Virus record (IMG/VR): IMGVR_UViG_3300043640_000413 | Coordinates: 1 to 41,323 of that record | Source of the DNA: a virus | DNA: 41,323 bases | Direction: 5' to 3' (one strand) | Shown here: piece after piece, positions 10,870 through 26,186 of the stretch | How the letters are laid out: each line of letters begins with the position of its first letter | Position numbering within the stretch: position 1 is the stretch's first letter | Made by a program: the position numbers and the translations under genes | Notes under the pieces: generated by a model | What the model was told of the DNA's origin: nothing | The model's input: the letters and a program-made list of their open reading frames with translations, nothing else | Database searches by the model: none

Positions 10870-11715
10870 TTATTCGCCTACCAGGTCCGCGACGTCCTGC
10901 AGCTGGTCGGATGCCCAGCGCGCGTTGGCCTCCAGGCGCTCGGCGATGTCGCCATCCACCGTGGCGCCCGCATCGGCGTAGAGCTGTTCCACGTCGCCAA
11001 ACACCTTGCGCAGGCGGGCGATGTGCGAGGCCGCCTCCACCACCGCCTCGTCGGCGTCGCGCAGCAGATCCTCGGCGGCGGTGCGCAGCTTCTGCTCGTC
11101 GCCGCCCTTGCGCTTGTCGCGGGTGAGCTTGTTGATGCGCTCATCCTTGGCGCGGATGATCTCTTCGTCGGTCTGCTTTTCCCTGTCGCGCTCGTCGCGC
11201 TCGGCGCGCAGTGTCGCCTTGAGCTCGCGCACCGACATACAGTCGACGTCGTCCAGGGTGAGGCCAGCCAGCGTGCCGCCGTTTTCCAGCGCGGCCAGGG
11301 TGTCGTCGTCTTCGGCGATCAGCTCCAGGGCTTTGCTCACGCCCAGGCCTTGCAAGTTGGGCATGCCGTGCAGCTTCGCCGCCGCCTGCATGGCACGCTG
11401 GGCAAACCGCACGCCGAAGCCGATTTGCTCCAGCGCGTTGTGGAAAGTGCCTGCCGCTTCACGTTCGCGGATGTGGATCAGCAGCTGGCCGATCTCGATC
11501 AACCGCTGCGCCGTTTCGTTGGCACACTGCTTGATGCGCGCAATGTACAGATCGCAGTTGTACGGCATGTCTACGCCGAACTCCTGCTCAGCGGCAGTGA
11601 CACGCATGGCCTGCGCGGCCAGCGCATGGCCGGCTTCGGCCAGGGCCTCTCGATCGATGGTGCTGTCGCCGGCCGTGATGATTTCGGGTGGCCGTGCGGT
11701 TTTGGGGCGTGCCAT
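10870..11715 (-). CDS. DUF3102-like coiled-coil protein
   Basis: A 281-residue protein. Residues 55-115 (LYIARIKQCANETAQRLIEI, then HIREREAAGTFHNALEQIGF and FAQRAMQAAAKL) fit the DUF3102 pattern seen in phages and plasmids. The remainder is a long charged coiled coil (residues about 165-225, RELKATLRAERDERDREKQ). A GGAGC ribosome site precedes the ATG. Some relatives sit beside partition or replication genes, but a role in transposition here is inference only. Confidence 0.65.
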   Translation of the reverse strand: MARPKTARPPEIITAGDSTIDREALAEAGHALAAQAMRVTAAEQEFGVDMPYNCDLYIARIKQCANETAQRLIEIGQLLIHIREREAAGTFHNALEQIGFGVRFAQRAMQAAAKLHGMPNLQGLGVSKALELIAEDDDTLAALENGGTLAGLTLDDVDCMSVRELKATLRAERDERDREKQTDEEIIRAKDERINKLTRDKRKGGDEQKLRTAAEDLLRDADEAVVEAASHIARLRKVFGDVEQLYADAGATVDGDIAERLEANARWASDQLQDVADLVGE

Positions 11716-11730: not shown

Positions 11731-12036
11731 TTAACGGGCGACGGTGAAGCGCTGTGCCACTTCGTCGACGCGCTTGCGCGCTTCGCCGAGGGCGTTGAGG
11801 ATGCGAAGGGCCAGCTGGCCCATGCGTGGGGTGACACGCCAGGCGCCGGAATCCAGCGGCTCGGCCAGGCCGGCCTCGCGCAGGTTGGCCAGGTCGCGGG
11901 TGACGTTGCTGGGGTTGGTGCGGATCGCCTTGGCGATCTCCCCTGGGGCGAGGCCCATGACCTCGTGCCCGGCCAGCAGCATCAGGGTCTTGAGCACGCG
12001 TTGCTGGGCAGCGTTGATGTAGGCGGTGTCGCTCAT
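11731..12036 (-). CDS. Winged helix-turn-helix regulator
   Basis: A 101-residue protein with an IclR/MarR-like winged helix: QQRVLKTLMLLAGHEVMGLA, then PGEIAKAIRTNPSNVTRDLA and NLREAGLAEPL with a short wing. It probably binds DNA as a regulator in the early region, a type seen in several Mu-like phages. The ATG overlaps the upstream stop as ATGA, and the stop lies 15 bases before the next start. Confidence 0.72.
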   Translation of the reverse strand: MSDTAYINAAQQRVLKTLMLLAGHEVMGLAPGEIAKAIRTNPSNVTRDLANLREAGLAEPLDSGAWRVTPRMGQLALRILNALGEARKRVDEVAQRFTVAR

Positions 12037-14061: not shown

Positions 14062-14085
14062 GGGTTTTTCTGGAGGGGCGTGTCT

Positions 14086-14517
14086 ATGCACCCGGCTGAG
14101 ATACAGGCGGCGCTTAAATTGCAGGGTTACAGCCAGGCACAGATAGCCACCATGTGCGGTGTGCAAGCGTCAGCAGTAAGCATGGTGATCAACGGCCGTG
14201 GTCGAAGCCGCCCCATTGAAGAGCAGATCAGCGTGCTACTGCGCCTCCCATTGAGCCGACTCTGGCCGCATTGGTATGAAGACATGGGTGCGCAATACAA
14301 AGGCGTCCGGGAAAAGCCGGACCTGACCGATGAGGAATTGATGATCCTTGAGGTCTACCGCTCTCTTTCGGGCATGCGAAAGCAGCAATTCCAGAGCATG
14401 CTGGAATTGTTTCGCCGTGGAGAGCCGCCGCGCGCGGAAGTCACGGCAGACCGGGGAAGCGTTGCGGCCGGGGGCGATGTAAATTTTGGCAAAGGCAGCG
14501 GGCGGCGGAAGAAGTAG
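14086..14517 (+). CDS. Ner-like protein, probable lysogeny repressor
   Basis: A 143-residue protein read divergently from the early operon, where Mu-like phages keep their repressor. Residues 8-70 are a Ner-like DNA-binding domain (GYSQAQIATMCGVQASA, VSMVINGRGRSR, LSRLWPHWYE). The C-terminal half (LTDEELMILEVYRSLSGMRK, FQSMLELFRRGE) is helical and could give oligomerisation; it ends in a Gly/Lys-rich tail. The ATG at 14086 has GGAGGGG at the right distance, while the GTG at 14080 is too close to it. Repressor role is inferred from place and operators. Confidence 0.75.
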   Translation: MHPAEIQAALKLQGYSQAQIATMCGVQASAVSMVINGRGRSRPIEEQISVLLRLPLSRLWPHWYEDMGAQYKGVREKPDLTDEELMILEVYRSLSGMRKQQFQSMLELFRRGEPPRAEVTADRGSVAAGGDVNFGKGSGRRKK

Positions 14518-15873: not shown

Positions 15874-16075
15874 GAGCAAAGCTCCCGTTTCACTGGCCGA
15901 CCGCGTGGCTGCCAGCCGGGCTCGCGCGATCGAGGGCGGCGCGCGTAAGATGACCGTGATGTTGCCCGAGGACGCCGTCGCTCGACTCAAGCTGCTGATC
16001 GATCGCGGCTATGCTGGCAACCAGACGCAGGCGTTGATCAGCGCGATCATGGCCGTGCCGGTGCCCAAGCGCTGA
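15866..16075 (+). CDS. Ribbon-helix-helix-like small protein
   Basis: A 69-residue protein. Residues 28-66 (KMTVMLPEDAVARLKLLIDR, then NQTQALISAIMAV) fit the strand-helix-helix layout of Arc/CopG DNA-binding proteins. It probably acts as a dimer on DNA. It overlaps the previous gene by 8 bases and its stop touches the TTAGT dyad at 16076, so it may even regulate the late region; that is inference. Confidence 0.6.
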   Translation: MTKSKAPVSLADRVAASRARAIEGGARKMTVMLPEDAVARLKLLIDRGYAGNQTQALISAIMAVPVPKR

Positions 16076-16096
16076 TTAGTAGCCGACGCTAAAAGA
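16076..16096 (+). promoter_or_regulatory. TTAGT dyad, possible activator site before lysis genes
   Basis: TTAGT-N7-GCTAA followed by AAGA lies directly after the stop of the previous gene and before the holin. A copy with 19 of 21 identical bases is at 23130-23150. No clear -35 box is near, as in Mor- or C-dependent promoters of Mu, so this is a candidate site for the Mor protein encoded at 1-354. Binding is not proven. Confidence 0.5.
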
Positions 16097-16111
16097 CCCC
16101 GGGGCATCCTG

Positions 16112-16130
16112 TGCGGCACTTTGTGCCGCA
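16112..16130 (+). other. Hairpin touching the holin start codon
   Basis: TGCGGCAC and GTGCCGCA pair perfectly around a TTT loop. The last base of the stem is the A of the holin ATG, and no other ribosome site is visible. Such a structure could hold back holin translation until late. It is too short and lacks a T-tract to be a terminator. Confidence 0.5.
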
Positions 16131-16459
16131 TGAACCTCTCGACGATCTACCAGGCTGTGCTGGGGTGGCTTGTATCCAAGCTGCCCGCCCTGCGCGACAA
16201 GATGCGCGCCACGCCGCTGCTGCTGGGCGGCGCCATCACGTTTGCCGTTGTGCTGGCCATGAACCCAGCCAAGGTCGGGCTGCTGATCTGGGGCGCCTCG
16301 CGCATCGGCCTGTACGGCTACCTGGGCTACTGGGTCGATCGCATCCTGTTTCCTGATGCGCGGCCGCACGTGCTGACGGGCATTGCGCAGGGCACCGCCT
16401 GGAAGCGCCGCGCGCTGATCGTGGCCGCCACCCTCCTTGCCGGGGCGCTGCTGCCATGA
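16130..16459 (+). CDS. Putative holin
   Basis: A 109-residue membrane protein with three hydrophobic stretches: LLLGGAITFAVVLAM, VGLLIWGASRIGLYGYLGYW and ALIVAATLLAGALL. The GYWVDRILFPDARPH block is characteristic of the putative holins found ahead of the endolysin in transposable phages. It would make the membrane lesion that starts lysis. The stop overlaps the endolysin start as ATGA. The start codon sits in a hairpin. Confidence 0.75.
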   Translation: MNLSTIYQAVLGWLVSKLPALRDKMRATPLLLGGAITFAVVLAMNPAKVGLLIWGASRIGLYGYLGYWVDRILFPDARPHVLTGIAQGTAWKRRALIVAATLLAGALLP

Positions 16460-17142
16460 CGTGGCTGCGCCGCTGCTTTGTCAGTGACAGCCTGTGGGTC
16501 GATGCGCTGCTGGCCATCGTCCTGTCGCTGCTCGTGCTGGGCTTTTTCGTGCTGCTGTCCATCGCGATCACGCCGCCCGCGCACGCCAGCGATGTGTCCA
16601 TACCCACCGACTCGGTGCGCTACCGCGTGCAGCTGGAGCGCGTGGCCGGTGCGCAATTCGGCATCGACGCACCGGTGGCCCGCATTGCCGCGCAGCTGCA
16701 CCAGGAATCAGGCTGGCGCCCCAAGGCGCATAGCGCCTACGCCCAGGGGCTGGCGCAGTTCACGCCGACCACCGCGGCGTGGTTGCCCCAGGTGTGCCCG
16801 AGCGTGGGCGCGGCCGATCCGTGGGACGCCAGTTGGTCGATTCGCGCGGCGGTCTGCTACGACGCGTGGCTGTACGACCGCACCCACGGCACCACGACTT
16901 GCGATCGCTGGGCGATGACGCTCAGCGCCTACAACGGCGGGGAGACCGCGCGCGACCGCGAGATCCACATGGCCTACGAGGCCCGCGATGATCCGGCGCG
17001 ATGGTTCGGCCAGGTGGAGCGGCAGCGGTCGCGCGGTGCCGCCGCCTGGTCGGAAAACCGCAGCTACGTGCGGCGCATCCTGCTCATCCTCGAACCCGCT
17101 TACTTTGCCGCCGGCTGGCCCGGCACGGTGGCCTGCACATGA
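16456..17142 (+). CDS. Endolysin, lytic transglycosylase (SLT type)
   Basis: A 228-residue enzyme that would cleave the glycan strands of peptidoglycan. Motifs of the SLT family are present: QLHQESGWRP with catalytic E84, QGLAQFTPTTAAW at about 97-109, and LSAYNGG at 156-162. A hydrophobic N-terminal segment (about residues 14-38, ending PPAHAS) is a signal anchor or cleavable signal, so export may not need the holin. It is followed by the spanin genes with an ATGA overlap. Confidence 0.88.
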   Translation: MTWLRRCFVSDSLWVDALLAIVLSLLVLGFFVLLSIAITPPAHASDVSIPTDSVRYRVQLERVAGAQFGIDAPVARIAAQLHQESGWRPKAHSAYAQGLAQFTPTTAAWLPQVCPSVGAADPWDASWSIRAAVCYDAWLYDRTHGTTTCDRWAMTLSAYNGGETARDREIHMAYEARDDPARWFGQVERQRSRGAAAWSENRSYVRRILLILEPAYFAAGWPGTVACT

Positions 17143-17582
17143 AGTACGTCCTCTCCCTGCTCGTCGCGCTGGCCTGTCTCGGCGGCATGGCCTGGGCCGT
17201 CCACAGCCGCGGCTATGACGAGGGCGTGGCCGCTACCAAGGCGTCAGCCGACAAGCAGGTCAAGGCGGCGAAAGCCGATGCACAGGCGGCGAACGACGAA
17301 CGCGATGCCAAGGCGCAGACGCTGGACAACGTGATGCGCACGATGGCCGAGCAGCGCGCCGAACTGGACCGGCTCAAGGAGTACGCAATCGCGGCGATGG
17401 CCCGCAATGTCGCCGAGCGACCCAAGCTGGCCGCGGCCACGGTATCCCGCACCAACAAGACCCGGAGCGTTGCCCATGAATCGCCTGCATGCACTGACCT
17501 CGCTCGCCTGCCTGTGTGCCCTGCCTTGTCTGACCGGCTGTGGCCTCAAGCGGCAGGCAGTGCACCCGGCCCAAGTCATTGA
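17139..17582 (+). CDS. Rz: i-spanin (Rz-like)
   Basis: A 147-residue inner-membrane spanin subunit. An N-terminal membrane segment (MKYVLSLLVALACLGGMAWA) leads into a long coiled coil (about residues 30-90, KQVKAAKADAQAANDERDAK and MRTMAEQRAELDRLKEY). It works with Rz1 to fuse inner and outer membranes at the end of lysis. The o-spanin gene is embedded out of frame in its last third. Confidence 0.82.
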   Translation: MKYVLSLLVALACLGGMAWAVHSRGYDEGVAATKASADKQVKAAKADAQAANDERDAKAQTLDNVMRTMAEQRAELDRLKEYAIAAMARNVAERPKLAAATVSRTNKTRSVAHESPACTDLARLPVCPALSDRLWPQAAGSAPGPSH

Positions 17583-17802
17583 GGTGCCGGTGCCGGCCTA
17601 CCAGCCACTGGACGTGTCGCTGACCCAGCCGCTGGCCGAGCCGCCAGCGCCGCCCAGGAATTGCGAGCTGCTCGGCGTGTCCGTGCCGTGCGCGCTCGAT
17701 GGCTTGCTCAACGTCGAGGCGTGGCGCGGCGTGCTCCAACGATGCAATGCCGACCGCGCCACGTCGGCCGAGATAACGAAACCTCCAGGGGATGGAAGAT
17801 GA
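17476..17802 (+). CDS. Rz1: o-spanin lipoprotein (Rz1-like)
   Basis: A 108-residue outer-membrane lipoprotein. The signal MNRLHALTSLACLCALPC is followed by the lipobox LTGC. The mature part is proline-rich (VPVPAYQPLDVSLTQPLAEP), as usual for Rz1. It overlaps Rz by 107 bases in another frame and has a GGAG upstream. The start at 17476 is chosen for the signal peptide; earlier ones add an unlikely leader. Confidence 0.82.
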   Translation: MNRLHALTSLACLCALPCLTGCGLKRQAVHPAQVIEVPVPAYQPLDVSLTQPLAEPPAPPRNCELLGVSVPCALDGLLNVEAWRGVLQRCNADRATSAEITKPPGDGR

Positions 17803-18209
17803 TGTTGAATTGGGAAACGATCCGCGCGGTTGCTGAGGTCGTTTCGGCGTGCTGCGCCATCACGGCGGCGGCCGTCAGCTTGGTGGTGTATCGCAAAGCG
17901 AAGGCCGGTGATCTCACGGCAAAGATGGACAGTGGCGACCGTGCGATCCGCAAGCACACCGACAGGTCGATCGGCGAGGTGAAATCGGAGCTTGGCAAGC
18001 TCAGTACACGCATGGCCGAGGTCGAGAACAGCAACGCGAGGATCGAGGAAAACCAGGCGCATTGCCTGGTGGGCAAAGACCTCGGCCCGTTGCACGAAAA
18101 GATCAACCGGATCGGCGAGCAGCTGGCCGGCAACACCGCCACCACCCAGGGCGTGCGTGAGCAGCTGCGCGTGCTGCATGACCTGCTGCTGCGCCGAGAG
18201 GATCGATAG
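17799..18209 (+). CDS. DUF2730 phage protein (Mu gp25-like)
   Basis: A 136-residue protein with an N-terminal membrane segment (VVSACCAITAAAVSLVVY) and a coiled coil behind it (KSELGKLSTRMAEVENSNAR). The C-terminus VREQLRVLHDLLLRRED is family-like. In Mu the same protein type sits between lysis and packaging genes, as here; its role is not known. The ATG at 17799 overlaps the Rz1 stop; the ATG at 17802 is equally possible. Confidence 0.75.
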   Translation: MMLNWETIRAVAEVVSACCAITAAAVSLVVYRKAKAGDLTAKMDSGDRAIRKHTDRSIGEVKSELGKLSTRMAEVENSNARIEENQAHCLVGKDLGPLHEKINRIGEQLAGNTATTQGVREQLRVLHDLLLRREDR

Positions 18210-18211
18210 CT

Positions 18212-18502
18212 ATGGACCTGGTCCAACAACAGGCGGCATTCCGCCGCGGCCGCATCCTGCGGATCCTCGCCGAGAGCAACGACCAGGGCGCCAGCGCGCC
18301 GATGGTGCGCACGCTGGTGCGCGGCTGGGGCTACAAGGCGGACGCCGACACCGTGGCGATCGACCTGGCCTGGTTGAGCCGGCAGGGCTTTGCGCAGCTG
18401 CGCGATGTGAGCGGCGTGGAGTTTGCCCGCATCACCCAGAGCGGCCGCGACATCGTCAGCGGCGACCTGGACGTGCCCGGCGTGAAGTGCCTGGAGGATT
18501 GA
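18212..18502 (+). CDS. Winged-helix phage protein (Mu gp26-like)
   Basis: A 96-residue protein of the VpaChn25_0724 type found before gp27 in Mu-like phages. The pattern RRGRILRILAESNDQGASAP, then TVAIDLAWLSRQGFAQL and ITQSGRDIVSGDLDVPGVK is typical. It reads as a winged helix, so DNA binding near packaging is possible. It starts 2 bases after the previous stop. Confidence 0.78.
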   Translation: MDLVQQQAAFRRGRILRILAESNDQGASAPMVRTLVRGWGYKADADTVAIDLAWLSRQGFAQLRDVSGVEFARITQSGRDIVSGDLDVPGVKCLED

Positions 18503-18505
18503 CCC

Positions 18506-19081
18506 ATGCCGCGTCGATCCTCCCTGGAACGCCTGCCGCCCGAACTGCAGGATCTCTACCACCGCCTGCTGCGGTCGGGCTGCACCATCATCGAGATCAC
18601 CGACAAGCTCAACGAGCTCGATGCCGACGTGAGCAAGTCCGCCGTGGGCCGCGCAGTGAAAGGTGCGCGCGCGCAGATGCGCCAGTATCGCGAGGCGCAG
18701 GAAGTCGCTGGCCAGTGGGTGACGCAGCTCAACGAACAGCCGCAGGGCGACGTCAGCGCGTTGCTGACGGAAATGCTGAAGACCGTGGCGTACTCCACCA
18801 TTGCCAGCATCGGCGACGGTAGCGAGGCCGAGGTCGGCAAGGACGGCAAGCCGAAAGCGCCCAAGGCGATGGACATCATGCTGCTGGCCAAGGCGATCCG
18901 GGATCTGGAGGCGTCGACCAAGCAGAGTCTGGAGCGGCGCGAGAAGATCGAGCGCCAGGCGCTGGAGCGGCAGACCAAGGCCGCCGAGGGCGTGGCGAAG
19001 AAGCAGGGCATGTCCAACGCGCACTGGGAAGAGATCCGCGCCAAGTTCCTGGGCATCGATGTTGCCGCGGCGGACGCATGA
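18506..19081 (+). CDS. Small terminase-like protein, DUF3486 (Mu gp27)
   Basis: A 191-residue protein of the DUF3486 family, the probable small terminase subunit that recognises the packaging site. It shows RRSSLERLPPELQDLYHRLL, a helix-turn-helix (TIIEITDKLNELDADVSKS), and GRAVKGARAQM. A coiled coil follows. It ends in an ATGA overlap with the large subunit. Confidence 0.85.
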   Translation: MPRRSSLERLPPELQDLYHRLLRSGCTIIEITDKLNELDADVSKSAVGRAVKGARAQMRQYREAQEVAGQWVTQLNEQPQGDVSALLTEMLKTVAYSTIASIGDGSEAEVGKDGKPKAPKAMDIMLLAKAIRDLEASTKQSLERREKIERQALERQTKAAEGVAKKQGMSNAHWEEIRAKFLGIDVAAADA

Positions 19082-20742
19082 GGCCCGACGAAAAAGAGGA
19101 AGCGCTCCAGCTGGTCGCGGAGATCCAGTCAGAGCGCACGGGCGCGGCTATCTCCGATGGTTCGCGCCTGGATATCCCTCGGCTGCTGCTACCCAGTCAG
19201 ATCCGTTGGCATCTGGATCAAGCTCGCGTGCGGCTGGCACAGAAAGGTCGCCGCGTCGGGTTCACCTGGGGCTGCTGGGCACCGGAAGCTGTTGGCGAGG
19301 CAGGTCTAAGCCAGGGCGGCATGGACCAGTTCTACATGGGGTACAACCAGGGCATGGCCGCCGAGTTCATCGGTGACTGCGCGATGTGGGCGCGTTGGTA
19401 CGGGCTGGCCATGAGCGAGATCGACGTTGCCTATGAAGCGGCGCTGATAGAAAACGAAAAGCGCGATGTCGTGCGCTACAAGATCCAACTGGCCAGCGGC
19501 CAGAAGATCGAGGCGTTGTCTGCGATGCCCTACAACTGGCGTGGCCGCCAGGGCCATGCGCGCATCGACGAGGCGGGCCATCACAAGCACCTTGGGCCCG
19601 TGATCGATGGCGCAATGGCTTACCTGATCTGGGGTGGACGCGTATCGATCGGTGGCACGCACAACGGCGAAGACAATTACTTCAATGACCTCGTGAAAGA
19701 TTGCAAGGCGGACAAGTTGCCCTGGTCGCTGCACACCAATCGATTCAGCGAAGCCGTGCGCGAGGGGCTGTTCAAGCGCATCTGTCTGGTCACGAAGAAG
19801 CCGTGGTCACCGGAAGCCGAAGCCAAGTTCATTGAGGAAGTGCGGGACTCCTATCGTTCTGTCGAGGCGGCGGACGAAGAGCTCGAATGCATCCCCATGC
19901 GCGGCACCGGCGTTTACTTCAGCCGCATGCTCCTGGAGAAGTGCGCGGTCGACGATGTCGAGATCCTGCACTACAACAAGCCGGCCACGTTCGTGCTCGA
20001 TCCCGACAGGCTGCGCATCACGCAGCAGTGGATCGACGATGTGCTGGCGCCAGCGGTGGCTCGGCTGCCGTCGAACCTTCGCACCGTGCTCGGTCAGGAC
20101 TTCGCCCGCGACGGCGATCTCTCGCCGATTGTGATCGGCCAAGCCATTACCGGCAGCGCCAAGTGGCGCACGCCGTTGCGCATCGAGCTGCGCAAGATCC
20201 CGTTCGACTGCCAGAAGCTGATCACCGCGTGGCTGCTGCTGAACCTGCCGCTGTTCCACCACGCCAAGTTCGACGCCCGCGGCAACGGCCAGAGTCATGC
20301 CGAGGCGGCGCTGCAGCTGGTGGGCCCGCAGCGCGTGGAATGCGTGCAGCTGACGGGCGGCTGGTACGACACCTGGTTCCCGCGCTATCACCAGGCGTTC
20401 GAGGACGGCGACATCCACACCTTCGGCGACGAAGACTGGATCGCCGACCACCGCAGCGTTGTCCTGGTGAAGGGCTCGCCGCGCATGAGCGATGCACGTA
20501 CCAAGGGCGCTGATGGTGGCGACCGCCACGGCGATACCGCCGTGTCCGGTGTGCTGATGTGGGCCGCTGCCCGGCAAGAGGCACAACCGGCTGCAGGCGA
20601 ATCCGTCGAGCCGGACACGGATACCTACCGTGCTGCCGGCTTCGGTCGGCGCTCGACGGCAATGTTTGGAAATCGGGCCGACGCCCAACGCGGCGTTCTA
20701 AGCCGCGCCGAGCGTCCGGGCCGCCACGATGGGACACGGTGA
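19078..20742 (+). CDS. Large terminase (Mu gp28-like)
   Basis: A 554-residue packaging motor. The ATPase part has the altered Walker A of the Mu group (QKGRRVGFTW, residues about 55-64) and Walker B ARIDEAGHH (161-169). The nuclease part has GQDFARDGDLS with D341 and a later GDRHGDTAV. It cuts and pumps phage DNA into heads; Mu-like phages fill by headful from host flanks. The last 40 residues are variable. Confidence 0.9.
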   Translation: MRPDEKEEALQLVAEIQSERTGAAISDGSRLDIPRLLLPSQIRWHLDQARVRLAQKGRRVGFTWGCWAPEAVGEAGLSQGGMDQFYMGYNQGMAAEFIGDCAMWARWYGLAMSEIDVAYEAALIENEKRDVVRYKIQLASGQKIEALSAMPYNWRGRQGHARIDEAGHHKHLGPVIDGAMAYLIWGGRVSIGGTHNGEDNYFNDLVKDCKADKLPWSLHTNRFSEAVREGLFKRICLVTKKPWSPEAEAKFIEEVRDSYRSVEAADEELECIPMRGTGVYFSRMLLEKCAVDDVEILHYNKPATFVLDPDRLRITQQWIDDVLAPAVARLPSNLRTVLGQDFARDGDLSPIVIGQAITGSAKWRTPLRIELRKIPFDCQKLITAWLLLNLPLFHHAKFDARGNGQSHAEAALQLVGPQRVECVQLTGGWYDTWFPRYHQAFEDGDIHTFGDEDWIADHRSVVLVKGSPRMSDARTKGADGGDRHGDTAVSGVLMWAAARQEAQPAAGESVEPDTDTYRAAGFGRRSTAMFGNRADAQRGVLSRAERPGRHDGTR

Positions 20743-20749
20743 GGCCGAA

Positions 20750-22258
20750 ATGAGCGCTGCGAAAATTCAGGAAAAGTCTCAGGGCGGTTTCGTTGCCCGT
20801 CTGCTGGGTGTATTTGCCGGAAACGGATCGAAACCGGCCCCGGAAGAGGCGAAACCGCTGCGTGAGGCAGCCGGTGCCACCGTGGACGACGACGATGCCG
20901 ACTGGCGACGCCTGACCGGCGACGGCCAGCGGGACCTGGCACCGATGACCCAGGACCGCATGCAACGCCTGGCGCATTACCAGTGGGAGACCAACCTGCT
21001 GGCCAACCGGCTGATCGAGTTGCCGGTGGCGTATTTGCTCGCCGGTGGCGTGCGCCTGGCGATCACCGACGAAGCCGCCCAGGAAATCCTCGACGCGCAC
21101 TGGCACGACGGCCTCAACGCGTGGGATCTGAAACTGCCCAAGCGGGCGCGCGAGCTGGGCCTTTTCGGTGAGCAGTGCTTTCCCGTCTTCCGCGATGACA
21201 ACACCGGGTTCGTGCGGCTGGGCTACCTGGACCCGGCGCTGATCGAAACCGTGGTGACGGATCCGGAAAACCGCGAGCAGCCGATCGGCATCGTGACCAA
21301 GCGCGACCGCAAGGGCGTGGCCAGGCGCTATCGCATCATCGTCAACGTGCCGGAGTCCGCGTTCGCCGAACGCACCCAGGAGATCCGCCAGACCTTCGAC
21401 ACGGGCGATTGCTTTTACTACCGCGTCAACGATCTGAGCAGCGCCACGCGCGGGCGCAGCGACCTGCTGGCGCAGATCGACTGGCTCGATGCCTACGACG
21501 GATTTCTGTTCGGCGAGCTCGACCGCGCCAGCTTCATGCGTGCGTTCGTGTGGGATGTGACGCTGGCCGGGGCGTCACCGGACGAGGTAAAAACGCGGGC
21601 GAAGGAGATTACGGCGCCCAAGCCCGGCAGCGTCCGCGTGCATAACGAAAGCGAGACCTGGTCGGCACAGACGCCCGACCTGAAGGCTGTCGATTCTGCC
21701 GAGGGCGCCAAGCTGTTTCGCAACCATGTGCTGGGCGGCGCCACCGTGCCGTCGCACTGGTACGGCGGTGGCGACGATGTCAACCGCAGCACCGGTGAAA
21801 GCATGAGCGAGCCGACAGAAAAGATGCTGCTGATGCGCCAGCGCACGCTGGGCTACATGCTCACCGACATTGGCCGCTACGTCCTGCGCAGTGCGTGGCA
21901 GGCGCTGGATCGCGAGTTGAACGCCAAGGAAGCCAAGGTGCTCAGTACCTTAACCGCGGCCTGGCCGGAGATGACCAACAAGGACATCACCAAGTACGCC
22001 GCGGCGCTGATGCAGATCGTCAGCGGCATCGCCGGCCTGCTCGACGAAGGGCTTATCACCCGTGAAACAGCGTTGCGCCTGGTGACGGCGGTGGCCGAGC
22101 GCCTGGGCGTGGAGATCGACGTCGACGAAGAGCTCGATGCGGCGACGAAGGAGCTGGCCAAACGCGGCGGCGACGACTTGCACGGCTTCGCATTGCGCAG
22201 TCGCCCGACACCCACGCCGCCGGCTGACGACGACGCCAGCGCTGCCGTCGCCGCCTGA
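20750..22258 (+). CDS. Portal protein, DUF935 (Mu gp29-like)
   Basis: A 502-residue portal, the ring through which DNA enters and leaves the head. Typical blocks are MQRLAHYQWETNLLANRLIE, FLFGELDRASFMRAFVWDV and GGATVPSHWYGGGDDVNRST. The ATG at 20750 has GAGG seven bases before it, while an ATG at 20729 overlaps the terminase end. The C-terminal helices fit the family. Confidence 0.9.
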   Translation: MSAAKIQEKSQGGFVARLLGVFAGNGSKPAPEEAKPLREAAGATVDDDDADWRRLTGDGQRDLAPMTQDRMQRLAHYQWETNLLANRLIELPVAYLLAGGVRLAITDEAAQEILDAHWHDGLNAWDLKLPKRARELGLFGEQCFPVFRDDNTGFVRLGYLDPALIETVVTDPENREQPIGIVTKRDRKGVARRYRIIVNVPESAFAERTQEIRQTFDTGDCFYYRVNDLSSATRGRSDLLAQIDWLDAYDGFLFGELDRASFMRAFVWDVTLAGASPDEVKTRAKEITAPKPGSVRVHNESETWSAQTPDLKAVDSAEGAKLFRNHVLGGATVPSHWYGGGDDVNRSTGESMSEPTEKMLLMRQRTLGYMLTDIGRYVLRSAWQALDRELNAKEAKVLSTLTAAWPEMTNKDITKYAAALMQIVSGIAGLLDEGLITRETALRLVTAVAERLGVEIDVDEELDAATKELAKRGGDDLHGFALRSRPTPTPPADDDASAAVAA

Positions 22259-22260
22259 CG

Positions 22261-23133
22261 ATGGACGCCGAGGAAGCCGCGCGGCGCTTCGCGGCGTCCG
22301 CCAAGGCGCAGACCGCGGGGCTGCCGCGCATACAGCGCGATGTGCTGGCCGAGATCGTGCGCCAGCTCGCGCTTGCCGAGGGCGCCGTTATCGATGCGCT
22401 GGCGGCGAAACCCACCGAAGCGGCACAACGCCGGCTGCGCCAGCTGCAGCTGGAGCTCGAACGCACGATGGAGGATTTCCGCCAGGCCGCCACCAACGCC
22501 AGCACGCAAGGTGCCAGCGACGGGTGGCAGGCCGGCATCCGCACGATCAGCGCACCATTCGACTCGGCCGGCGTGTCGGTGCTGGGCGCGCGGATCGATG
22601 CTGGTGCGCTGATGGCCACGCAGCGATTCATGACCGATCGCATTGAGGACATCAGCCTGCGGGCGCTCAACAAGCTCAACGGCGCGCTGATGCAAAACGT
22701 GATCGGCGCCGTGCCGCTGAGCGACACCATTACCCAGGTGCAGCGGATCCTCGGCGGGGCGCCCCGATCGCGCGCCATGACGGTGGCGTACACCGAGATC
22801 GGCATGGTGCATTCGGTTTCCCAGGACGCGGCCCTGCAGCAGGCAGGGCACGTGGTGCCGGGCCTGCACAAGCGCTGGCTCAAGAGCGGCAAGCGGCACC
22901 CGCGCGAAACACACGTGGCTGCGCACAATCAGATTCGGCGCTACGATGAGCCGTACCTGGTCGGCGGCGAGAAGCTTCGTTTCCCGCGCGACCCGGATGC
23001 CAGCGCCGGCAACATCATCAACTGCGGCTGTCACTCCATCCCGGTGGTCGACGGCTCCACGTTCGAAGGCGGCGTGTTCCGCATCGACAGTTCCGGCGCC
23101 GTCCGCACGGTTGCCCTGCCAGGTGCGCGTTAG
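22261..23133 (+). CDS. Head morphogenesis protein (Mu gpF-like)
   Basis: A 290-residue minor head protein of the Mu gpF/SPP1 gp7 family, bound near the portal. The family's C-terminal signature is seen: ARSRAMTVAYTEIGMVHS-like helix (here PRSRAMTVAYTEIGMVHS), HPRETHVAAHNQIRRYDEP and NCGCHSIPVV. It starts 2 bases after the portal stop. Its stop codon lies in the TTAGT dyad at 23130. Confidence 0.88.
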   Translation: MDAEEAARRFAASAKAQTAGLPRIQRDVLAEIVRQLALAEGAVIDALAAKPTEAAQRRLRQLQLELERTMEDFRQAATNASTQGASDGWQAGIRTISAPFDSAGVSVLGARIDAGALMATQRFMTDRIEDISLRALNKLNGALMQNVIGAVPLSDTITQVQRILGGAPRSRAMTVAYTEIGMVHSVSQDAALQQAGHVVPGLHKRWLKSGKRHPRETHVAAHNQIRRYDEPYLVGGEKLRFPRDPDASAGNIINCGCHSIPVVDGSTFEGGVFRIDSSGAVRTVALPGAR

Positions 23134-23150
23134 TAGCGGACACTAAAAGA
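23130..23150 (+). promoter_or_regulatory. TTAGT dyad, possible activator site before capsid genes
   Basis: A perfect TTAGT-N7-ACTAA dyad followed by AAGA, almost the same as 16076-16096. It lies in the 94-base gap between gpF and the next gene, overlapping the gpF stop. It could bring extra late transcription to the capsid and tail tube genes. No good -35 box accompanies it. Confidence 0.5.
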
Positions 23151-23227
23151 TTCCGCGTCACCGATCATCCACATTCGTCTCCACACCGCGATTTCGCGCA
23201 TTCCGCGTTTGCGTCCTGGAGATGAGC

Positions 23228-23617
23228 ATGCCCCCCAAATCCACACCCGTCGCGCCGACCGAAGCCGAGCAAGCTGCCGCTGCGCAGGCGGAGACCGAGC
23301 GCCTCGCCGCTGAAGAGGCCGCCGCTGAGCAAGCCGCTGCCGAAAAGGACGAAGCCGACAAGGCTGCCGCAGCACAGGCGGAGACCGAGCGCCTCGCCGC
23401 CGAACAGGCTGCCGCCGACAAAGCCGCTGCGCTGGCGGACAAGAACGCCGCTCGCGCGGTCGGCACCGCCGCCGCGCCGAGCAAGGCCACCAACACCAAC
23501 GCGTTGAAGAAGATCGGCATCGAAGTGCTGGCCGAAGCGCGCCACGGCGAGAAGCTCATCTGCCGGGTACTGCAGGACGCCAAGCGGGTGTGGAAGGAAT
23601 TCTTCCATGAAGCGTAA
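23228..23617 (+). CDS. Ala/Glu-rich coiled-coil protein with tandem repeat
   Basis: A 129-residue protein before the capsid gene. Residues about 15-75 are Ala, Glu and Gln rich with two copies of AAAQAETERLAAE 30 residues apart, likely a long helix. The C-terminus (NALKKIGIEVLAEARHGEKL) is globular-looking. The ATG at 23228 has GGAG six bases upstream; ATG 23222 is too close. Place and shape would suit a scaffold or capsid assembly helper, but this is inference. It overlaps the next gene by 11 bases. Confidence 0.55.
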   Translation: MPPKSTPVAPTEAEQAAAAQAETERLAAEEAAAEQAAAEKDEADKAAAAQAETERLAAEQAAADKAAALADKNAARAVGTAAAPSKATNTNALKKIGIEVLAEARHGEKLICRVLQDAKRVWKEFFHEA

Positions 23618-26186
23618 TTTGCTGGCCGCGCTGATCGCAATGGCGATCCCGACGGAAGGCGTGCCAGGCGAAACGCTGTTGCGCGAAGCGGCCACCACCG
23701 AGCTGGGACAGATCACCGACCTGGTGCGCAGCGCGTTGAAGCGCAACTACGGCCTGGGCGAGAACGGCTGGGTGTGCATCGAGGCGATCTATCCCGATCG
23801 CGTCGTGGTCGAGCGCGACGGCAAGAACTTCCAGTTCACCTACACCATCGACGACGCCAACAACGTGGTCCTTGGCGCGGCCACCGAAGTGGTGATGACC
23901 GCGACGCCGGTGACGGAAACCACCGTGCGCGAAGCGGCCGCCACCGAGATGCGTGCGGTCAACTCCCTGGTGCTGGGGGCCATCCGCAAGGTCAAGCCGG
24001 ACATCTGGGATGTCATCGCCATGTACCCCGACCGCGCCGTGGTCGCCGGCGACGATCGGCGTCAGTACGCCTACCCCTACACCATCGACGACAGCAACCA
24101 GGTCACCCTGGGCACGCCGTACGAAGTGATCTCGCAGCACGTGCCGGCATCGAGCACCATGCCGGCGCGTGAGGCACGCGCAACACATACCCCCCCGAAG
24201 AGCGGCAACGCGGCGGGCGACCTGCAGGGCACGGTGTTTATCGAAGCCCTGCAGGCGCCCGAAGGCCAGAAGCCGTCGCGCTACCTGGTGCGGGTGATCA
24301 AGGCGGGCACATCGCTCAACAACGTGACGTACCCGCGTAACGTGTTGCGCGAAGCCGCACCGTTGTTCGACGGCGCGCGCGTATTCGTCAAGTCCGATGC
24401 CGAGCATCTCAAGGGTGGCGGCAAGGACGTGCGCCAGCTGGTCGGGCGGCTGTCCGATTCCAAATTCGTCGAAGCCGGCGTCGGCGAAATTCAGTCCGTG
24501 ATGGACGTGTTCGATTCCGCTGACGTCGCGCCGATGCTGCGCGAAGCCGTGCAGCGCGGCATGACCGACCTGTTCGGCCTGTCGATCGACGCCAGCGGCA
24601 AGAGCAAGAAAACCGGCGAGTTCCGCGAAGCCATCAGCCTGACCAAGGTGGCCAGCGTGGACTTGATCATCGAGCCCGGTGCCGGCGGGCAACTCATCCG
24701 TTTTGTAGAAGCCCACAACCCCGAGGAAGACACCATGCTGCGCTCGCAGATGATCACAGAGATTAGTGCCCGCGATGCGAAGCGGGCCGAAGGGCTGGCC
24801 GATGCCAGTGACGCCGACGTGCTGGCCGCCTACCGCGAAGCGGTGGGTACGGCTGCCGACAAGGGCACCGAAGATGCCGTCACCAAGGGCCAGGTCGACG
24901 AACGCTTCCGCATGATCGAAGCGCGCGCCGAGGCGCGCGTGTTGATCGCCGAGAGCAAGCTGCCGCTGGCCACCCAGGTGCGCCTCAACGAACGCTTCCG
25001 CGAAGCGGCCAGCTTCACCACCGAGAACGTCACCGCATCGATCGAGGACGAGCGCAAGTACCTGGGGCAGATCGTCGACGGCTCCAAGATCACCGGCCTC
25101 GGGCATTTCATCGAAGCGGGCGAAAGCCGCGCTGAAAAGATGCAAACGATGTTCGATGATTTCTTCGACCACACGAAGAAGGTCCAGTCGTTCCGCGAGT
25201 GCTACATCGAGTTCACGGGCGATCGCGGCGTCACCGGCAAGCTCGGCAATTGCGACATGTCGCGGATGCGCGAAGCGGCGGGGGAGCGTGGCTTCCGCGA
25301 GGCCATCAGCGCCAGCACATTCGGCGACACCCTGGGCGATTCGATCACCCGCGCCATGATCCGCCTTTATGGCGCCTCTGACGCCTACACCGACTGGCGC
25401 TGGATGTGCGATGTGGTGCCGATCACCGACTTCCGCACGCAGGAACGCACCCGCGTCGGCGGCTACGGCAATCTGGCGACAGTGGCCGAGAACGGCGCTT
25501 ACCCGGACGTCAACTCGCCGACCGACGAAAAGGCAACCTATGCGGTCACCAAGCGCGGTGGTGTCGAGACACTGAGCCTGGAGGCGATCGCCAACGACGA
25601 TGTGGGCTTGATCCGACGCATCCCGCAGATGCTGGCCACCGCGGCGGGCCGTACCGTGTTTGAGTTCGTGTACGACTTCCTGCGGTCGAACGCGGTCATC
25701 TACGACACCAAGGCGCTGTTCCACGCTGACCACGCCAACATCGGCACGGCCGCACTGGACGAAGACAGCTTCGCCGCGGCGCGTCTGCGCATGAAACAGC
25801 AGACCGAGAAGGACAGCGGCAAGCGCCTGGGCATCACCCTCAAGCACCTGGTGATCCCCTCGGAGCTCGAACAGGTTGCCTACGACACGTTCGTGCGGTT
25901 CCAGAACCTCGACAAAACGTTCGTGCAATCCCGCTCGCCGACCGTCCATGTGGTCGACTACTGGACCGACACGAACAACTGGTTCGCCGCAGCCGACAAC
26001 GCCCAGGTGCCGTTGATCGAAATGGGCTTCTATGGCGGCAACGAGGATCCCGAGCTGTTCGTGCAGGACACGCCGAACCAGGGCTCGCTCTTCAGCAACG
26101 ACCAGATCAAATACAAGATCCGGCACATCTACAGCGGCGCTGTCCGCGACTACCGCGGCTTCGACGGATCCATCGTCGCTGCCTGA
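23607..26186 (+). CDS. Prohead protease-major capsid protein fusion
   Basis: An 859-residue fusion. Residues about 24-180 hold two copies of an 80-residue module (each starting REAAxTE and containing YPDRxVV and YTIDDxNxVxLG). Residues about 205-370 look like a prohead protease/scaffold (GTVFIEALQAPEGQ, LREAAPLFDGARVFVKSD, KVASVDLIIEPGAGGQLIRF). Residues about 510-859 are the capsid protein (RTRVGGYGNLATVAENGAYP, DTKALFHADHANIG). Self-cleavage during assembly is expected. The tripeptide REA occurs ten times, far more than chance. The protease active residues could not be assigned. Confidence 0.82.
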   Translation: MKRNLLAALIAMAIPTEGVPGETLLREAATTELGQITDLVRSALKRNYGLGENGWVCIEAIYPDRVVVERDGKNFQFTYTIDDANNVVLGAATEVVMTATPVTETTVREAAATEMRAVNSLVLGAIRKVKPDIWDVIAMYPDRAVVAGDDRRQYAYPYTIDDSNQVTLGTPYEVISQHVPASSTMPAREARATHTPPKSGNAAGDLQGTVFIEALQAPEGQKPSRYLVRVIKAGTSLNNVTYPRNVLREAAPLFDGARVFVKSDAEHLKGGGKDVRQLVGRLSDSKFVEAGVGEIQSVMDVFDSADVAPMLREAVQRGMTDLFGLSIDASGKSKKTGEFREAISLTKVASVDLIIEPGAGGQLIRFVEAHNPEEDTMLRSQMITEISARDAKRAEGLADASDADVLAAYREAVGTAADKGTEDAVTKGQVDERFRMIEARAEARVLIAESKLPLATQVRLNERFREAASFTTENVTASIEDERKYLGQIVDGSKITGLGHFIEAGESRAEKMQTMFDDFFDHTKKVQSFRECYIEFTGDRGVTGKLGNCDMSRMREAAGERGFREAISASTFGDTLGDSITRAMIRLYGASDAYTDWRWMCDVVPITDFRTQERTRVGGYGNLATVAENGAYPDVNSPTDEKATYAVTKRGGVETLSLEAIANDDVGLIRRIPQMLATAAGRTVFEFVYDFLRSNAVIYDTKALFHADHANIGTAALDEDSFAAARLRMKQQTEKDSGKRLGITLKHLVIPSELEQVAYDTFVRFQNLDKTFVQSRSPTVHVVDYWTDTNNWFAAADNAQVPLIEMGFYGGNEDPELFVQDTPNQGSLFSNDQIKYKIRHIYSGAVRDYRGFDGSIVAA

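What the first reader, a model, noticed from the sequence alone, without database searches (positions are those of the whole stretch)
16076..23150. Pair of near-identical TTAGT-N7-(A/G)CTAA dyads before the lysis and capsid genes
The 21-base elements at 16076-16096 and 23130-23150 share 19 bases, sit right after a stop codon each, and precede the two blocks of late genes. Inverted 5-base arms with a 7-base spacer and no clear -35 box fit an activator-dependent promoter, and the phage encodes a Mor-type activator at 1-354. No other copy was seen. The site-activator link would define the late switch of this phage.
Basis: partly seen in the sequence, partly recalled or inferred. Interest (0 to 1): 0.65.

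Follow-up and report, generated by a model that had tools for sequence, protein, structure and literature searches.

The report
Paired late promoters of a Mu-like phage
Two matching DNA switch sites in front of a virus's cell-bursting and shell genes look like on-buttons for one viral activator protein, and each has a built-in hairpin that probably stops the gene being made from the wrong messages too early.

Summary
Across 17 of 17 family records the conserved element is TRRC-N4-GYYA followed by AAAG. There are two per well-covered genome, one before the holin and one before the capsid block. Half-sites co-vary (TAGC/GCTA, TAAC/GTTA, TGAC/GTCA) and match in type at both sites of a phage. A weak -10 (NANNNT) lies 31-37 bases past the dyad centre, as at Mu Pm, with no -35. 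The same layout (other half-sites, AAAAG at +6 to +10) occurs three times in Pseudomonas phage B3 and three to four times in a further clade. So this is very probably a Mor-activated late promoter. The Mor link is supported by Mor's presence in records reaching that end and by weak recognition-helix co-variation (p=0.006, uncorrected for ancestry). It is not proven. Two further features: the holin ATG lies where the transcript should start (predicted leaderless), and a covarying hairpin hides the AUG (site 1) or Shine-Dalgarno (site 2) only in read-through RNA, resembling T4 gene e. The hairpin reading is computational only.

The parts
16080..16091 (+). Site 1 dyad TAGC-CGAC-GCTA, centre between 16085 and 16086
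   Evidence: Perfect 4-bp arms; conserved with co-varying arms upstream of the holin in relatives
16091..16095 (+). AAAAG flank at +6 to +10 from the dyad centre
   Evidence: 53 or 54 of 54 aligned sites at each position, including B3 and distant clades; these sites were partly selected by patterns containing the A run
16117..16122 (+). -10-like hexamer CACTTT (+32 to +37)
16111..16131 (+). Palindrome GTGCGGCAC-TTT-GTGCCGCAT spanning the -10 and including AT of the start codon
   Evidence: Covariation 0.314 against 0.119 shuffled, 0 of 500 shuffles as high
16130..16459 (+). Holin gene; ATG at +45 from the dyad centre, no Shine-Dalgarno, predicted leaderless
   Evidence: phrog_1528 holin E 2e-12, Pfam Holin_2-3; start conserved by tblastn
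23134..23145 (+). Site 2 dyad TAGC-GGAC-ACTA (one half-site imperfect), centre between 23139 and 23140
   Evidence: Syntenic sites in most relatives are perfect
23145..23149 (+). AAAAG flank of site 2
23170..23175 (+). -10-like hexamer CACATT (+31 to +36)
   Evidence: A+32 in 9 of 11 and T+36 in 10 of 11 site-2 relatives, binomial 2e-6 and 5e-7, not corrected for ancestry
23174..23183 (+). Left arm of hairpin ending at the predicted transcript start (+43 or +44)
   Evidence: Folded with ViennaRNA
23217..23226 (+). Right arm of hairpin containing Shine-Dalgarno GGAG (23218-23221)
   Evidence: SD unpaired 0.00 in read-through RNA, 0.40 in RNA starting at +44
23228..23617 (+). First gene of the capsid block (ATG 23228, alternative ATG 23222)
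   Evidence: shared with L004, L009, L020
1..384 (-). Mor-family activator (likely ATG start at about 351)
   Evidence: PF08765 E 6.2e-15; profile matches Mu Mor 1rr7 and Mu C 9l0x

Best explanation
The two elements are the late promoters of this B3-like transposable phage. Early in lytic growth the leftward operon makes Mor, its last gene. A Mor dimer binds the short dyad TRRC-N4-GYYA in front of the holin and capsid blocks and recruits host RNA polymerase, which contacts a weak -10 (NANNNT) about 31-37 bases past the dyad centre and starts at about +43 to +45. At site 1 that start coincides with the holin ATG, so the holin message is probably leaderless. At both sites the DNA just upstream of the start can pair, in RNA that reads through from upstream, with the AUG or Shine-Dalgarno. 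Read-through RNA would therefore be silent, while RNA from the promoter lacks the left arm and is translated. Shown: sites, synteny, dyad co-variation, -10 conservation, hairpin covariation at site 1. Inferred: Mor binding, start point, leaderless translation, read-through silencing.
For: The site is present at the two syntenic places in 17 of 17 family records, usually exactly twice per genome. Half-sites change on both sides together and are of the same type at both sites in the 9 distinct records that hold both. -10 conservation: S2 A+32 9/11 and T+36 10/11, S1 15/16. Mu Mor binds a dyad centred at -43.5 with no -35 (PMC4390567). B3 has three such sites, and the B3-like phage Fc02 shows three late transcript clusters, the first beginning with holin-endolysin genes and the second mainly structural genes (PMC9936078). 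Distant clades carry 3-4 sites with half-site TTAAA. Mor is found in the family records that reach that end. Recognition-helix residue 3 is K, K or R in the 3 phages with TAAC or TGAC sites and T, Q or P in 8 with TAGC sites, p=0.006. Site-1 hairpin covariation 0/500. AUG unpaired probability, start-at-ATG class: median 0.00 in read-through, 0.81 in late RNA, 0.46 with shuffled upstream.
Against: No transcript start or binding data exist for this phage. The recognition-helix test has 11 points, is not corrected for ancestry, and does not extend as a simple code to B3 or the distant clades. Hairpin significance varies: for the window itself site 1 gives p=0.29 and site 2 p=0.005. Only 5 of 19 SD-type sites reach p<0.05. 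Fc02 is a relative in organisation, and its own promoter sequences were not examined here.
Confidence: 0.8

Rival explanations
1. Late promoters activated by a phage regulator other than Mor.
For: The Mor link is correlative; other small regulators are encoded (11731-12036 minus, 14080-14517 plus).
Against: Mor is present in the family records that reach that end, is annotated as the late activator of B3, and related Mor and C use a similar dyad geometry in Mu. No copies lie in the early control region.
Confidence: 0.1
2. Operators of the phage repressor that keep late genes off in the lysogen.
For: Short dyads are typical operators, and the repressor gene lies upstream of site 1.
Against: No copy lies near the repressor or early promoters. 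The constant 31-base spacing to a -10 fits an activator site upstream of RNA polymerase.
Confidence: 0.05
3. Same promoters, but the downstream palindromes are not read-through locks: they are stability hairpins or DNA-level structures (a rival to the hairpin part only).
For: The palindrome at site 1 lies mostly upstream of the predicted start, and third-cluster leaderless sites of the distant clade mostly lack it.
Against: It specifically covers the AUG or SD, covaries into codon 2, and the left arm ends at the predicted start.
Confidence: 0.35

Closest known systems
Phage Mu Mor-dependent Pm and C-dependent late promoters
   Same: Mor/C family activator; dyad at about 43 bases before the start; no -35; -10 present; Mu mom upstream region holds TTAT-N6-ATAA with TAAGAT at +32 to +37.
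   Different: Mu uses 5-bp arms with 6-bp spacer at Pm and two activators in series; here the arms are 4 bp with 4-bp spacer, the flank AAAAG is fixed, and only one activator is found.
Pseudomonas phage B3 (Beetrevirus) late region
   Same: Three dyads with AAAAG at +6 to +10 and the -10 at +31 to +36, at holin, protease and tape-measure genes.
   Different: Half-site CGAA instead of CTAA; three sites instead of two; not described in the papers that could be read.
Phage T4 gene e read-through lock
   Same: Long transcripts hide the start region in a hairpin; late promoter RNA lacks the 5' arm (PMC3014915).
   Different: T4 uses its own late sigma and SD-led translation; here the promoter is Mor-type and site 1 is probably leaderless. 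Works alike, not homologous.

Membership tests
Mor/C-dependent promoter (Mu type) | Phage encodes a Mor/C family activator | tested here: met
   PF08765 E 6.2e-15; matches 1rr7
Mor/C-dependent promoter (Mu type) | Inverted repeat upstream of late genes, conserved and co-varying | tested here: met
Mor/C-dependent promoter (Mu type) | 5-bp arms with 6-bp spacer (specific to Mu Pm) | tested here: not met
   4-bp arms, 4-bp spacer; only the outer AA at +6,+7 is shared with the Mu mom dyad. Hence 'variant', not 'Pm-type member'
Mor/C-dependent promoter (Mu type) | -10 hexamer at the Pm spacing and no -35 | tested here: met
   no sigma-70 pair found
Mor/C-dependent promoter (Mu type) | Activator binding and activator-dependent start at +43.5 from the centre | not testable with these tools
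   Needs footprint and 5'-end mapping
T4 gene e-like read-through lock | Start region paired in long RNA, free in promoter RNA | tested here: inconclusive
   Strong for most relatives at site 1, weaker at site 2 and for the window's own site 1
T4 gene e-like read-through lock | Measured difference in translation | not testable with these tools
   Needs reporters

The most novel reading that the evidence does not exclude
Transposable phages of this group use a single Mor-type activator with rapidly changing half-sites to fire leaderless late messages, and place the promoter inside a hairpin so that lysis genes cannot be translated from lysogenic read-through RNA.
Probability: 0.45. Interest if true: 0.65.

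Novelty: new variant of a known kind. Interest (0 to 1): 0.58.

Why it matters
It gives a testable late-switch code for B3-like transposable phages, for which the papers that could be read here describe no late-promoter sequences. It offers a natural series of co-varying Mor proteins and half-sites for working out how Mor/C activators choose DNA. It suggests a safety lock on lysis genes in lysogens, converging with T4.

Tried and rejected
A third site in the window: none; best other scores no better than shuffled sequence. A site in a Kiloniella genome: host DNA, chance. Sigma-70 -35/-10 pairs: none. Known RNA families: none. A universal Mor recognition code across all clades: not seen. D3112 carries a repeated GTTGAACCCCTTCC element 44 bases before hairpin-ATG starts, but no clear dyad. 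A B3 holin re-start at 11635 would be out of frame with the annotated start, so it was dropped. The GTG at +43 in the distant clade may not be the true start, because an SD-ATG follows in frame.

Full report
The sequence. The window is a 41,323-base virus record. It carries a B3-like gene order: Mor, GemA, transposition protein and transposase on the minus strand, then a repressor, holin, endolysin, spanin, terminase, portal, Mu-F-like, capsid and tail genes on the plus strand. The nearest relatives in genomes come from Lysobacterales, including Rudaea. Up to three mismatches give only these two places, and none are expected in shuffled sequence.

What is conserved. A terminase search found about 30 related viral contigs. 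At the syntenic positions upstream of the holin and of the capsid block, the relatives of the family carry TRRC-N4-GYYA-AAAG. Searching whole records with one mismatch allowed, 17 of 17 family records have it, and well-covered records have two. The half-site varies: TAGC in most, TAAC in L003, L005, L029 and L133, TGAC in L014. The two halves change together, and both sites of a phage are of the same type; the exceptions are single-base departures, such as the window's own site 2 (ACTA) and L011 site 1 (GTTA).

Promoter anatomy. Aligned without gaps on the dyad centre, AA at +6,+7 and AAAAG at +6 to +10 are almost invariant (partly because the sites were found with patterns that contain it). 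The next conserved positions are A+32 and T+36 (41 and 48 of 54 sites), which no search pattern used. This is the spacing of Mu Pm, where a Mor dimer sits at -43.5, no -35 is used and a -10 is present (PMC4390567, PMC4287176). The upstream sequence of Mu mom holds TTAT-N6-ATAA with TAAGAT at +32 to +37.

Breadth. Phage B3 has three sites, TTTTCG-N6-CGAAAAG, before holin, protease and tape measure. In the B3-like phage Fc02, strand-specific RNA-seq shows three late clusters (PMC9936078). A further clade of isolate phages has 3-4 copies of CTTTAAACTCGATTAAAAG with the -10 at the same place. The library papers found do not describe these sites; most subscription papers, including the original B3 genome paper, were not readable, so priority is not excluded.

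The activator. Mor is found in the family records that reach the left end and matches the solved Mor and C structures. Residue 3 of its recognition helix is K, K or R in the three phages with TAAC or TGAC sites, and T, Q or P in eight with TAGC (Fisher p=0.006, not corrected for ancestry). This supports Mor as the binder but does not prove it.

Leader and hairpins. At site 1 the holin ATG lies at +44 or +45 with no Shine-Dalgarno, where the transcript should begin. At site 2 the ATG or GTG lies at +62 to +89 with a Shine-Dalgarno. At site 1 a palindrome runs from before the -10 into codon 2. Its arms covary (score 0.314 against 0.119 shuffled, 0 of 500; slid versions far lower). Folding shows the AUG buried in read-through RNA and free in RNA that starts at the ATG. 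At site 2 the left arm ends at the predicted start and pairs with the Shine-Dalgarno. With shuffled upstream sequence as control, 18 of 30 start-at-ATG sites but only 5 of 19 SD sites reach p<0.05. For the window, site 2 is significant and site 1 is not. In the distant clade, third-cluster sites before a baseplate gene (PF04965) mostly lack the hairpin, while the lysis-side sites have it, which fits a lock kept for genes that are dangerous when expressed early. T4 gene e works this way (PMC3014915).

Verdict. A real late-promoter pair, probably Mor-driven: a new variant of the Mu Mor/C kind. The lock and the leaderless start are the most interesting part and the least certain.

Noticed in passing
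L173 (B3) 19857-19887: B3 protease is annotated from a CTG at 19857; an ATG at 19887, in frame, directly after a GCCGCC-N8-GGCGGC hairpin, is the more likely start.
   Followed up: partly
L175 (D3112) 10698 and 19742: GTTGAACCCCTTCC occurs twice, each 44 bases before a hairpin-ATG start (orf20 and protease), with CAGGAT/CACCAT as possible -10.
   Followed up: partly
window 23607-26186: Major head protein fused to a protease-like N-terminal part in one 859-residue frame.
   Followed up: no
window 15950-16075: Short frame ending MTVMLPEDAVARLKLLIDRGYAGNQTQALISAIM, ribbon-helix-helix-like by eye, just upstream of site 1; no Pfam match.
   Followed up: no
L020 12250-12290, L025 3340-3370: In some relatives the dyad directly abuts a terminator-like hairpin and T run ending the upstream unit.
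   Followed up: no
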